This document shows, one piece after another, positions 13,209 through 16,366 of a stretch of 64,000 nucleotides of DNA. The notes below the pieces were generated by a model. It was given only the letters and a program-made list of their open reading frames with translations, had not been told where the DNA came from and searched no databases. Where the stretch lies: assembly GCF_008729015.1 (NCBI RefSeq), contig NZ_RKSM01000001.1, positions 2,914,001-2,978,000 on the forward strand, written 5' to 3'. A program made the position numbers and the translations under genes. The DNA is from Haloarcula sp. CBA1129 (GTDB lineage Archaea; Halobacteriota; Halobacteria; Halobacteriales; Haloarculaceae). The stretch's first letter is position 1. Each line of letters opens with the position of its first letter.

Positions 13209-14783
13209 TCAGTTGTCGAACCGGGCCTGAACGAACGGCTGGACGTCGTCGATATCGCCGAGTCGCGAATCCGACAGGAGTACCGCCTCCGTCTCTTCGG
13301 TTGGAACCGACAGCGAGATCTCTTTGGTCCGGCCATAGCGTCCCTTCGAGACGACGACGGCGTTGACGATGCCGAGCATATCCAGTTCCGAGATGAGGTC
13401 GGTGACGCGGCGCTGTGTCAGGATGTCGGCGTCGATCTCCTCACAGAGGTTCTTGTAGATGTTGAACACCTCGCCGGTGTTGATGTTGTGGACCCCGTTT
13501 TTCTCCAGCAGGATGATGGCAAAGAGGACGATCTTCGACTGCGTGGGGAGTGTCCGGACGACCTCCACGACGCGGTCGAGTTCGATCTTCTCTTGGGCCT
13601 GCCGGACGTGGTCTTCGAGGACGTTGTCCGTCTGGTCGCGTTCGGCGAGTTCGCCGGCCGTCCGGAGGAGATCAAGCGCGCGACGGGCGTCCCCGTGTTC
13701 CTGTGCGGCGAAGGCCGCACACAGCGGAATGACATCCTCGGTGAGCGCGTCGCCTTTGAACGCCACGTCCGAGCGTGCCTGCAAGATGTCCCGGAGCTGG
13801 TTCGCGTCGTAGGGCGGGAAGACGATCTCCTCCTCGCCGAGGCTGGATTTGACCCGCGGGTCGAGGAAGTCAGTGAACTTCAGGTCGTTCGAGATACCCA
13901 TAATCGAGACGCGGGAGTTCTCCAGTTCGGAGTTCATCCGGGAGAGGTTGTACAGGGTGTCGTCGCCGCTTTTCTCGACGAGCTTGTCGATTTCGTCGAG
14001 CATGATGACGACCACGCGCTCGTGGTAGTCGACGGCGTCGAAAAAGGAGCTGTAGACCCGGTCTGTCGGCCACCCCGTCATCGGGACTTCCTCGAACTCG
14101 GACTTGTCGGCTTCCAGCGATTCGATTTCGGTTTCGATGTCGTCGATGGAGTCAAACGCCGTCTCTTCGAGTGCAGCCGTGTTCTCGCGTGCCCGTGACT
14201 GAAGATCTTCGAGTTCAGCGACGCGGTCGTCGATGAGCTGAGCGTTCTTGTCGATGAATTTGTTCGCCAACTGAGCCAGTACTCGATACTGGGTATCAGT
14301 CACCTCGCAATTGATGTATTCGACCTCGCAAGGGACCTCGTATTTCTGTGAGGTCGTTTCGAGTTCCTCGCTGACGAACTTCGCCGACGCGGTCTTGCCC
14401 GTTCCGGTCTTGCCGTAGATGAGGATGTTCGACGGCGTGTCACCGCGCAACGCGGTAACGAGGATAGTCGCCATGTTGTTGATCTGCTCTTCGCGGTGGG
14501 GGAGTTTGTGCGGCGTGTACGAGGGACGAAGCACCTCTTTGTTCTCGAATATCGGCTCCCCTTCGAGGAGATCGTCGAACAGGCCACGGGACGCCTCGTC
14601 GGAGGGATCGTCAGACCCCGCATCGAGATTGTCGAGAATAACGTCGTCGAGATCGGACGGCCCGGTCGATGTCCCGGACTCCGTTTTGACGTCGAGTTGC
14701 CCGTCGGACCCGTCAGCGTCGTTCGACGTCTCTGTTGTCGACGAATCGGGTTCCGGGGGCGAGTTGTCGCTTTCGTCAGTCAT
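13209..14783 (-). CDS. orc1: Orc1/Cdc6 replication initiator
   Basis: A 524-residue AAA+ origin-recognition protein. A disordered acidic N-terminal extension (about 1-75) precedes the ATPase core. Walker A is GKTGTGKT (124-131), Walker B is VIMLDEIDKL, and sensor 1 is IMGISNDLKF. A winged-helix DNA-binding domain occupies the C-terminus (DILTQRRVTDLISELDMLG). It should bind the ORB repeats immediately upstream (14784-15724) and load the MCM helicase. A TATA-like box lies at 14930-14938 on this strand with an ORB-like TCCAGTTGAACC just downstream, so self-regulation is plausible. Confidence 0.94.
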   Translation of the reverse strand: MTDESDNSPPEPDSSTTETSNDADGSDGQLDVKTESGTSTGPSDLDDVILDNLDAGSDDPSDEASRGLFDDLLEGEPIFENKEVLRPSYTPHKLPHREEQINNMATILVTALRGDTPSNILIYGKTGTGKTASAKFVSEELETTSQKYEVPCEVEYINCEVTDTQYRVLAQLANKFIDKNAQLIDDRVAELEDLQSRARENTAALEETAFDSIDDIETEIESLEADKSEFEEVPMTGWPTDRVYSSFFDAVDYHERVVVIMLDEIDKLVEKSGDDTLYNLSRMNSELENSRVSIMGISNDLKFTDFLDPRVKSSLGEEEIVFPPYDANQLRDILQARSDVAFKGDALTEDVIPLCAAFAAQEHGDARRALDLLRTAGELAERDQTDNVLEDHVRQAQEKIELDRVVEVVRTLPTQSKIVLFAIILLEKNGVHNINTGEVFNIYKNLCEEIDADILTQRRVTDLISELDMLGIVNAVVVSKGRYGRTKEISLSVPTEETEAVLLSDSRLGDIDDVQPFVQARFDN

Positions 14784-14929
14784 AGTCGAGGGGATCCCCT
14801 TCGTTTCGTGTGGAGAGAGTTGGAGACACCGGAACAGAGGGAGCGAGGAGTGCGTCAGTACCGTCGTTAGTGAGCATCAGCGCTCTCCGGTGTGTCCAGT
14901 TGAACCACATGAACCGTACCGTGAGTCGA

Positions 14930-14938
14930 TATTAAATA
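14930..14938 (-). promoter_or_regulatory. TATA-like box of orc1
   Basis: On the minus strand it reads ATTTAATAT. A start of transcription about 25 bases downstream would fall at the ORB-like element at 14895-14906, leaving a leader of roughly 120 bases. Confidence 0.5.
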
Positions 14939-15186
14939 TTTCGGTACACCACCTATGAAAGATATATGTTGGTACATTGATTGTTTCTATCGGGTGCGTA
15001 TCGTTGTGGTAAAGAGAACTGTAGCTTCAGCCTCGTCGAGGCAAGTCGGATACGATACAGCAGGAGACTGACTGGAGGGAAAGGGAGGCGTGGTGCGGTT
15101 CCGGGCGCTGCTACGCTATGTGAATATAGGTGAGGATACCACAAGGAGGGACGGAGCCGGCAGGGCAGATCGACCGCACCGGGCAA

Positions 15187-15218
15187 CCCCCCCCCCACCC
15201 CTTCGTTTCCGGTGGAAC
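15187..15218 (-). repeat. ORB element, left outer
   Basis: On the minus strand: GTTCCACCGGAAACGAAGG followed by GGTGGGG and more G residues. This matches the haloarchaeal origin recognition box (dyad plus G-tract). It shares its dyad with the plus-strand ORB at 15211-15248. Confidence 0.8.
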
Positions 15219-15248
15219 TGGAAACAGGCCCGGGGGTGGGGGGAGGGG
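15211..15248 (+). repeat. ORB element, left inner
   Basis: GGTGGAACTGGAAACAGG followed by CCCGGGGGTGGGGGG. The G-tract points right, into the A+T-rich core. Confidence 0.75.
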
Positions 15249-15437
15249 ATGCAGATGCTATCTTCTAGTAAGAGGAAAGATTTAATACAGTATCTCATAA
15301 ACCAAAGCCGCACTAGATAAAACAAATAACTAGAAGGGGTCTGTAGTCGTTTTCTAGTGTCTAGGCGGCTCTAGCTAGTGTAATCACAGTTCGCGGTAAT
15401 CTGAACAGTTGGTCCGCTCCCGATTCGACCGACAATT

Positions 15438-15470
15438 TCCCCACCCCTCCCCACGGGGATGAACGGTTCC
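15438..15470 (-). repeat. ORB element, right inner (degenerate)
   Basis: On the minus strand GGAACCGTTCATCCCC precedes GGGGAGGGGTGGGG. The dyad is imperfect but the G-tract is intact and points left, into the core. Confidence 0.6.
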
Positions 15471-15493
15471 AGTTGAAACGAAGGGGTGGGGGG
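15465..15493 (+). repeat. ORB element, right outer
   Basis: GGTTCCAGTTGAAACG followed by AAGGGGTGGGGGG, the best match to the haloarchaeal ORB in this window. It is inverted relative to 15438-15470. Confidence 0.85.
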
Positions 15494-15724
15494 CTAGGCT
15501 CGTCGCCGACAATCCGAGTCGGTGGGCCGAGAGATCGGGTTCCACCTGAACAACTCCCGCCAGCTGTACTCATCCCAGCGTTCACACGTTCGTCCGCGCT
15601 ATTCGATGCTCTTCTATCTCATATCAATAATAATACTGATGTCTGACGTAGGCTTAAGTGAATTCGCCTATCTTTTACGGGCAGAGCCGCCATACCGGAC
15701 GACTCCGGGCGGCGGGAGGATAGG

Positions 15725-16366
15725 ATGGGATTGTTAACAAACCTCAAAGATAGCATCTCACGCGCGGCATCGACGCTGTTCTCGGAAGAAGATCCGAAGC
15801 GTATCGGGATCTACGGCCCGCCAAACGCCGGCAAGACCACGTTGGCGAACCGTATCGCACGGGACTGGACTGGCGACGCCGTCGGCCCGGAGAGTCACGT
15901 TCCCCACGAGACTCGACGCGCCCGCCGTAAGGAGAACGTCGAGATCGAACGCGACGGGAAGAAAGTGACAATCGATATCGTCGACACGCCGGGCGTGACG
16001 ACGAAGGTCGACTACACCGAGTTCCTCGAACACGACATGGAGAAAGACGACGCTGTCCGTCGCTCGCGGGAAGCGACGGAGGGTGTCGCCGAAGCGATGC
16101 ACTGGCTTCGGGAGGATGTCGACGGCGTCATCTACGTGCTGGACTCCGCGACCGATCCGTTCACACAGGTCAACACCATGCTCATCGGCATCATCGAGAG
16201 CCAAGACCTACCGGTGTTGATTCTGGCAAACAAGATCGACCTCGAAGAGTCTTCCGTCCAGCGCATCCGAAACGCCTACCCACAGCACGAGACAATTCCG
16301 CTGTCGGCGCTTGAGGGAGATAACATGGACGAGGTCTACGACAAAATCGCGGAGTACTTCGGGTGA
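15725..16366 (+). CDS. oapA: Origin-associated Era-like GTPase OapA
   Basis: A 213-residue GTP-binding protein. G1 is GPPNAGKT (31-38), G3 is DTPG after IDIV, and G4 is NKID after LILA. A short amphipathic N-terminus precedes the G domain. It corresponds to OapA, the GTPase beside the main origin in haloarchaea. The role at the origin is not settled. A clear Shine-Dalgarno GGAGG (15715-15719) five bases before the ATG confirms the start, unusual in a genome with many leaderless genes. It leads the three-gene oap operon and diverges from orc1 across the origin. Confidence 0.9.
   Translation: MGLLTNLKDSISRAASTLFSEEDPKRIGIYGPPNAGKTTLANRIARDWTGDAVGPESHVPHETRRARRKENVEIERDGKKVTIDIVDTPGVTTKVDYTEFLEHDMEKDDAVRRSREATEGVAEAMHWLREDVDGVIYVLDSATDPFTQVNTMLIGIIESQDLPVLILANKIDLEESSVQRIRNAYPQHETIPLSALEGDNMDEVYDKIAEYFG

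What the first reader, a model, noticed from the sequence alone, without database searches (positions are those of the whole stretch)
15265..15378. Seven CTAG sites in 114 bases of the origin core, in a genome that avoids CTAG
CTAG occurs at 15265, 15313, 15330, 15354, 15361, 15371 and 15375, with another at 15494. By eye the other 63 kb hold only a few dozen. CTAG is depleted in haloarchaea, and some methylate it. Clustering exactly in the unwinding core suggests selection for flexibility of TA steps or for methylation-state control of initiation, analogous in principle to GATC/SeqA in E. coli. I know of no description of this.
Basis: partly seen in the sequence, partly recalled or inferred. 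Interest (0 to 1): 0.8.

Follow-up and report, generated by a model that had tools for sequence, protein, structure and literature searches.

The report
CTAG methylation-site cluster at haloarchaeal origin
The main replication origin of this salt-loving archaeon really does hold a dense cluster of an otherwise rare four-letter site, CTAG, which a conserved DNA-methylating enzyme marks; the pattern was published in 2016, its job is still unproven, and the site itself, not DNA flexibility, is what evolution keeps.

Summary
Seven CTAGs lie at 15265-15378, plus one at 15494; the 64-kb window holds 35 (about 99 expected). [quoted passage not shown]

The phenomenon is not new. Blow et al. 2016 (PMC4752239, Fig 6D) reported CTAG clusters upstream of orc1/cdc6 in Haloarchaea, correlated with an orphan m4C CTAG methyltransferase (Zim). 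This genome encodes that enzyme.

New detail here:
- Across about 150 oriC1 loci, CTAG is the most over-represented of 256 tetramers between the ORBs of MTase-bearing genomes (275 vs 81 expected).
- Related genomes lacking the MTase show no enrichment (9 vs 10.9).
- TA steps as such are not enriched, so the flexibility idea fails.
- GATC does not replace CTAG where the MTase is lost.
- One family (probably Natrialbaceae) keeps CTAGs at fixed, roughly helically phased positions; Haloarculaceae keep the number while positions move.
- In this genome all four tight CTAG clusters lie upstream of orc/cdc6 genes.

The MTase is not sufficient: several MTase-bearing Haloferacaceae have few or no sites. 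Tree-corrected contrasts are too few for significance.

Best reading: a set of m4C target sites that couples origin state to methylation. The effect on initiation is inferred.

The parts
13209..14783 (-). orc1/cdc6 initiator gene of oriC1
   Evidence: NCBIfam ORC1-type DNA replication protein, 651.6 bits over cut-off 501; 97-98% identical to Haloarcula species
15187..15218 (-). left ORB with outward halophile G-string (CCCCCCCCCCACCCCTTCGTTTCCGGTGGAAC)
   Evidence: consensus match at 15195-15209; nearly invariant block across Haloarcula species
15231..15248 (+). internal G-rich repeat, counterpart of element III of Har. hispanica oriC1
   Evidence: sequence; [quoted passage not shown] hispanica (PMC3936714)
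15258..15357 (.). predicted duplex-unwinding element, least stable 100 bp of the window
   Evidence: nearest-neighbour energy scan
15273..15312 (+). conserved promoter-like element (GGAAAGATTTAATA, then AAACCAAAGCCGCA) ending at the CTAG at 15313
   Evidence: found forward in 17 of 33 Haloarculaceae and 15 of 19 f3 cores; 7 of 131 on the reverse strand over all sets
15265..15268 (.). CTAG 1, next to the inner G-rich repeat
   Evidence: retained in all 4 closest Haloarcula
15313..15316 (.). CTAG 2, end of conserved CCGYA block
15330..15333 (.). CTAG 3
15354..15357 (.). CTAG 4
15361..15364 (.). CTAG 5
15371..15378 (.). CTAG 6 and 7, abutting (CTAGCTAG)
   Evidence: site 7 retained in all 4 closest Haloarcula, site 6 in none
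15439..15453 (.). right internal C/G-rich repeat, counterpart of element IV
   Evidence: sequence
15465..15493 (+). right ORB with outward G-string (GGTTCCAGTTGAAACGAAGGGGTGGGGGG)
   Evidence: consensus match at 15475
15494..15497 (.). CTAG 8, abutting the right G-string, outside the ORB pair
   Evidence: present at the same offset (+19) in Har. amylolytica L004 and Har. argentinensis L008
15725..16366 (+). oapA-type GTPase gene, conserved origin neighbour
   Evidence: small GTP-binding domain; next to orc1 in the relatives; the oapABC cluster beside orc1 is described in PMC7921747

Best explanation
The cluster is a maintained set of target sites for the conserved orphan m4C methyltransferase Zim (CTAG), placed between the inverted ORBs of oriC1. 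Likely mechanism, by inference: resting origins carry m4C on both strands of 7-8 palindromes; passage of the fork leaves them hemimethylated; the two states differ in melting or in binding of a protein (Orc1, MCM loader or an unknown reader), so methylation state modulates when the origin can fire again. Shown here: the sites, their place, positive selection for CTAG itself, the MTase gene, and co-variation of cluster and MTase. Not shown: methylation of these sites in this organism, any reader, any effect on initiation.
For: CTAG is the top tetramer of 256 between the ORBs in 65 MTase-bearing genomes: 275 vs 81.2 by dinucleotide shuffle, z 23.8; 15.7 per kb vs 1.46 in the rest of the same intergenic region and 0.18 in flanking genes. 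Haloarculaceae 212 vs 58.8; f3 119 vs 37.1; f4 (Haloferacaceae-type) with MTase 49 vs 27.7; f4 without MTase 9 vs 10.9. The own MTase (L002) is 48.5% identical to the pFZ1 MTase next to an MjaI-family restriction gene, the MthZI CTAG system. CTAG is m4C-methylated in Haloarcula marismortui (PMC6606915). In this genome all four loci with 3 CTAGs at gaps of 15 or less lie upstream of orc/cdc6 genes.
Against: MTase presence is not sufficient: 5 of 5 g15 (probably Halorubrum) genomes that carry the MTase have 0 CTAG, and 4 of 5 g19 (Haloprofundus) have 0. Tree-corrected independent pairs are only 4-6 and not significant. An MTase-less Halovenus MAG (L077) has 10 CTAG, though a 2.4-Mb MAG may simply miss the gene. 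In Hfx. volcanii a strain deleted for the CTAG MTase and other RM genes showed no growth defect and only oriC2 was CTAG-rich; that species also grows without origins (PMC5867850). No reader is known.
Confidence: 0.5

Rival explanations
1. The CTAGs are cores of binding sites for a sequence-specific protein at the origin, and methylation is incidental or merely modulates it.
For: In f3 (probably Natrialbaceae) the sites form a TTACTAGA-like array at near-fixed columns (19/19, 19/19, 18/19, 16/19) with spacings of 10, 20-22 and 31 bp, clustering by helical turn (R 0.57 at 10-10.5 bp), and CTAG is the best retained of 84 tetramers (0.71 vs median 0.15).
Against: In Haloarculaceae, including this window, there is no phasing (R 0.05), only a weak W-CTAG-W context, and positions move while number is kept. 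Enrichment tracks the MTase across families. f3 genomes are related, so the phasing is not many independent observations.
Confidence: 0.25
2. The clusters act on expression of the adjacent orc/cdc6 genes rather than on the origin.
For: Other clusters in this genome lie 102-362 bp upstream of orc starts (799729, 1018591, 1469870), and none of those three loci shows a clear haloarchaeal G-string beside its cluster. CTAG enrichment near starts of genes was reported in Haloferax (PMC11001535).
Against: At oriC1 the cluster is 482-595 bp from the orc1 start, between the ORBs; the AT-rich orc1-proximal segment (14928-15027) has none.
Confidence: 0.12
3. The origin is merely a refuge: a genome-wide process removes CTAG elsewhere and spares this AT-rich non-coding DNA.
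For: CTAG is depleted genome-wide (PMC6471742), and lower-GC segments hold somewhat more.
Against: Relief from depletion gives the expected number, not 3.6 times it. Equally AT-rich segments of the same genome hold at most 2. The rest of the same intergenic region has 1.46 per kb against 15.7. CTAG is the most conserved tetramer in f3.
Confidence: 0.06
4. Selection for flexible TA steps that ease melting.
For: The cluster lies in and beside the least stable 100 bp of the window.
Against: TA steps are at base-composition expectation; only the CTAG context is raised, TTAG and CTAA are depleted, TTAA is not enriched; the tightest part is 56% GC.
Confidence: 0.03

Closest known systems
CTAG motif clusters upstream of orc1/cdc6 in Haloarchaea with an orphan m4C MTase (Blow et al. 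2016, PMC4752239, Fig 6D)
   Same: Same motif, same kind of location, same MTase family, several orc loci per genome, correlation with the MTase
   Different: Blow et al. used 500-bp windows; here sites are placed between the ORBs, TA-step and GATC-replacement ideas are tested, conserved-position and turnover regimes are separated, and MTase-bearing genomes without clusters are listed
Dam/SeqA control of E. coli oriC (GATC)
   Same: Cluster of palindromic sites of an orphan MTase at an origin
   Different: m4C instead of m6A, rare instead of common motif, archaeal Orc1 origin, no SeqA-like reader known, MTase loss tolerated in Hfx. volcanii
Haloarcula hispanica oriC1 (PMC3936714)
   Same: Inverted ORBs with outward G-strings, internal G-rich repeats, AT-rich centre, next to cdc6A
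   Different: That study mutated the G-rich elements, not CTAG; its text does not mention CTAG
MthZI CTAG restriction-modification system of plasmid pFZ1
   Same: MTase homologous to the one in this genome (48.5% over 85%)
   Different: There it is paired with an MjaI-family endonuclease; the haloarchaeal enzyme is reported as an orphan

Membership tests
Haloarchaeal oriC1 | Intergenic region next to orc1/cdc6 with conserved oap gene on the other side | tested here: met
Haloarchaeal oriC1 | Inverted ORBs with halophile G-strings flanking an AT-rich element | tested here: met
Haloarchaeal oriC1 | Replication (ARS) activity | not testable with these tools
   shown only for relatives (PMC3936714)
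Orphan-MTase motif cluster at an origin (Blow 2016 type) | Significant motif cluster in non-coding DNA at the origin | tested here: met
Orphan-MTase motif cluster at an origin (Blow 2016 type) | Cluster at orthologous locations in other species | tested here: met
Orphan-MTase motif cluster at an origin (Blow 2016 type) | MTase of that specificity in the genome | tested here: met
   by homology only:
Orphan-MTase motif cluster at an origin (Blow 2016 type) | Cluster presence correlates with MTase presence | tested here: inconclusive
   clear across families and within g17; absent within g15; only 4-6 independent pairs
Dam/SeqA-like replication control | Sites methylated, and hemimethylated after replication | not testable with these tools
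   CTAG is m4C in Har. marismortui (PMC6606915)
Dam/SeqA-like replication control | Reader protein of hemimethylated sites | not tested
   no candidate known
Dam/SeqA-like replication control | Methylation state changes initiation | not testable with these tools
   needs mutants

The most novel reading that the evidence does not exclude
Archaea use a methylation-state clock at their main origin: m4C on CTAGs between the ORBs licenses or delays firing of oriC1, read in one lineage by a protein that binds a helically phased CTAG array; an archaeal counterpart of Dam/SeqA that arose independently.
Probability: 0.3. Interest if true: 0.88.

Novelty: already known. Interest (0 to 1): 0.5.

Why it matters
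CTAG methylation by Zim is almost universal in haloarchaea, yet its function is unknown. A cluster confined to the unwinding region of the main origin, with CTAG itself under selection, points to replication and gives a small, editable target (eight sites) in a genus with genetics and ARS assays. A positive result would be, to my knowledge, the first methylation-based control of an archaeal origin.

Tried and rejected
(1) TA-step flexibility: rejected by TA-context counts. (2) Replacement of CTAG by GATC in lineages without the CTAG MTase: not seen; GATC in their cores is at shuffle expectation, 18 vs 15.1. (3) Refuge from CTAG depletion: rejected by over-representation and by AT-matched controls. 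(4) MTase as a sufficient cause: rejected within g15 and g19. (5) L003 as the CTAG MTase: set aside; it resembles an MTase on a Proteus vulgaris plasmid (probably M.PvuII) and has an Mrr-type neighbour. (6) Tree-corrected test: too few independent MTase losses. (7) CTAG at sigma-type promoters: scan uninformative in archaea. (8) Literature search for an effect of m4C on duplex stability gave nothing on target.

Full report
OBSERVATION. CTAG lies at 15265, 15313, 15330, 15354, 15361, 15371, 15375 and 15494, as stated, and 35 times in the window against 98.7 expected. No other tetramer of the 256 forms so extreme a local cluster in the window; 100 shuffled windows reached at most 5 per 114 bp, and 5000 shuffles of the core itself never gave 7. 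Eighty-two segments of 114 bp with GC of 45% or less from about 300 kb of the same genome hold 0.17 on average and 2 at most.

PLACE. The region is oriC1 of a Haloarcula-type genome: orc1/cdc6 at 13209-14783 (-), 98% identical to Har. amylolytica, and an oapA-type GTPase at 15725-16366 (+). Inverted ORBs with outward G-strings lie at 15187-15218 and 15465-15493, with G-rich repeats just inside, as in Har. hispanica oriC1 (PMC3936714). The stretch 15258-15357 is the least stable 100 bp of the 64 kb. Seven of the eight CTAGs lie between the ORBs; the eighth abuts the right G-string.

PRIOR ART. Blow et al. 2016 (PMC4752239) searched for motif clusters of orphan MTases in non-coding DNA and found CTAG clusters upstream of orc1/cdc6 in Haloarchaea, at several orc genes per genome, correlated with the MTase. 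(Their running text prints 'CATG' and 'orc6/cdc1'; the figure legend has CTAG and orc1/cdc6.) Ouellette 2018 (PMC5867850) found CTAG density raised only at oriC2 of Hfx. volcanii and no growth defect in the strain deleted for the CTAG MTase and other RM genes. The 2023 survey (PMC10609329) repeats the replication hypothesis. DasSarma 2019 (PMC6606915) shows m4C CTAG in Har. marismortui and says the function is unknown. The claim of novelty therefore falls.

METHYLTRANSFERASE. Two PF01555 MTases are in this genome. L002 is 48.5% identical over 85% to the MTase of plasmid pFZ1, which sits beside an MjaI-family endonuclease gene, so it is the CTAG enzyme by homology. L003 resembles an MTase on a Proteus vulgaris plasmid and has an Mrr_cat neighbour.

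COMPARISON. Inter-ORB cores were taken from 76 relatives with tested MTase status and from 118 class-wide genomes; the two sets partly overlap, so about 150 distinct loci. In MTase-bearing genomes CTAG is the most over-represented tetramer (275 vs 81.2, z 23.8). By group: Haloarculaceae 212 vs 58.8; f3 (probably Natrialbaceae) 119 vs 37.1; f4 with MTase 49 vs 27.7; f4 without 9 vs 10.9; remaining families 45 vs 16.9. Against a simple rule, five g15 genomes with MTase have none, and g19 is nearly devoid. On a tree of oap genes there are only 4-6 independent pairs, so the association cannot be called significant after correction.

WHAT IS SELECTED. TA steps are at expectation, and 32% of them sit in CTAG. 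TTAG and CTAA are depleted, TTAA is not enriched, and GATC does not take over in MTase-less relatives. In f3 the CTAGs occupy near-fixed columns at spacings of 10, 20-22 and 31 bp and are the best retained tetramer (0.71 vs median 0.15). In Haloarculaceae exact retention is low (0.18) although most cores hold 4-9 sites. So one lineage keeps positions, the other keeps number.

GENOME-WIDE. Three CTAGs at gaps of 30 or less occur at eight places in this genome, four of them just upstream of orc/cdc6 genes; with gaps of 15 or less, all four places are upstream of orc/cdc6 genes. The gap limit of 15 was chosen after seeing the first result. In other Haloarculaceae, five of six further clusters examined are also next to orc/cdc6 genes. 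Three of the orc loci of this genome with clusters show no clear G-string beside the cluster, so some clusters may act on orc expression or on origins of another ORB type.

MECHANISM. Shown: the cluster, its place, selection for CTAG, the MTase gene. Inferred: m4C at these sites, hemimethylation after replication, and a difference between the two states in melting or protein binding that tunes re-initiation. I give about 0.5 to a methylation-dependent role and 0.25 to a binding-site role independent of methylation.

VERDICT. A true and striking pattern, already published in outline; the flexibility reading is wrong, the methylation reading is plausible and directly testable.

Noticed in passing
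window 15273-15312; cores of L004-L083 and L138-L237: A conserved, orientation-fixed promoter-like element (TTTWWW, 14-32 nt, CCGYA) sits inside the origin core, mostly at about +54 to +72 from the left ORB, in many families: 58 of 131 forward, 7 reverse, 2 in shuffles. It may mark transcription or another bound element within the unwinding region.
   Followed up: partly
f3 origin cores, L218-L237: Near-fixed TTACTAGA-like array with 10, 20-22 and 31 bp spacing, suggesting a protein bound on one face of the helix.
   Followed up: partly
G000:C1:1018591, 799729, 1469870 (L118, L120, L125): Three other orc/cdc6 genes of this genome carry tight CTAG clusters upstream but no clear G-string ORB beside them.
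   Followed up: partly
L003 1345-3911: A second m4C-type MTase, like one on a Proteus vulgaris plasmid (probably M.PvuII), next to a convergent Mrr-type endonuclease gene: a likely restriction-modification pair.
   Followed up: partly
G000:C2:9743-10843 and G000:C1:805213-806313: A 12-kb contig and the chromosome carry orc/cdc6 copies with the same score and, in part, the same upstream G/C-run layout, hinting at an integrated plasmid.
   Followed up: no
g15 genomes G148, G183, G186, G228, G245: Genomes of a mostly MTase-less genus that carry the CTAG MTase but have no CTAG between the ORBs: natural material to test whether the enzyme has other duties.
   Followed up: no
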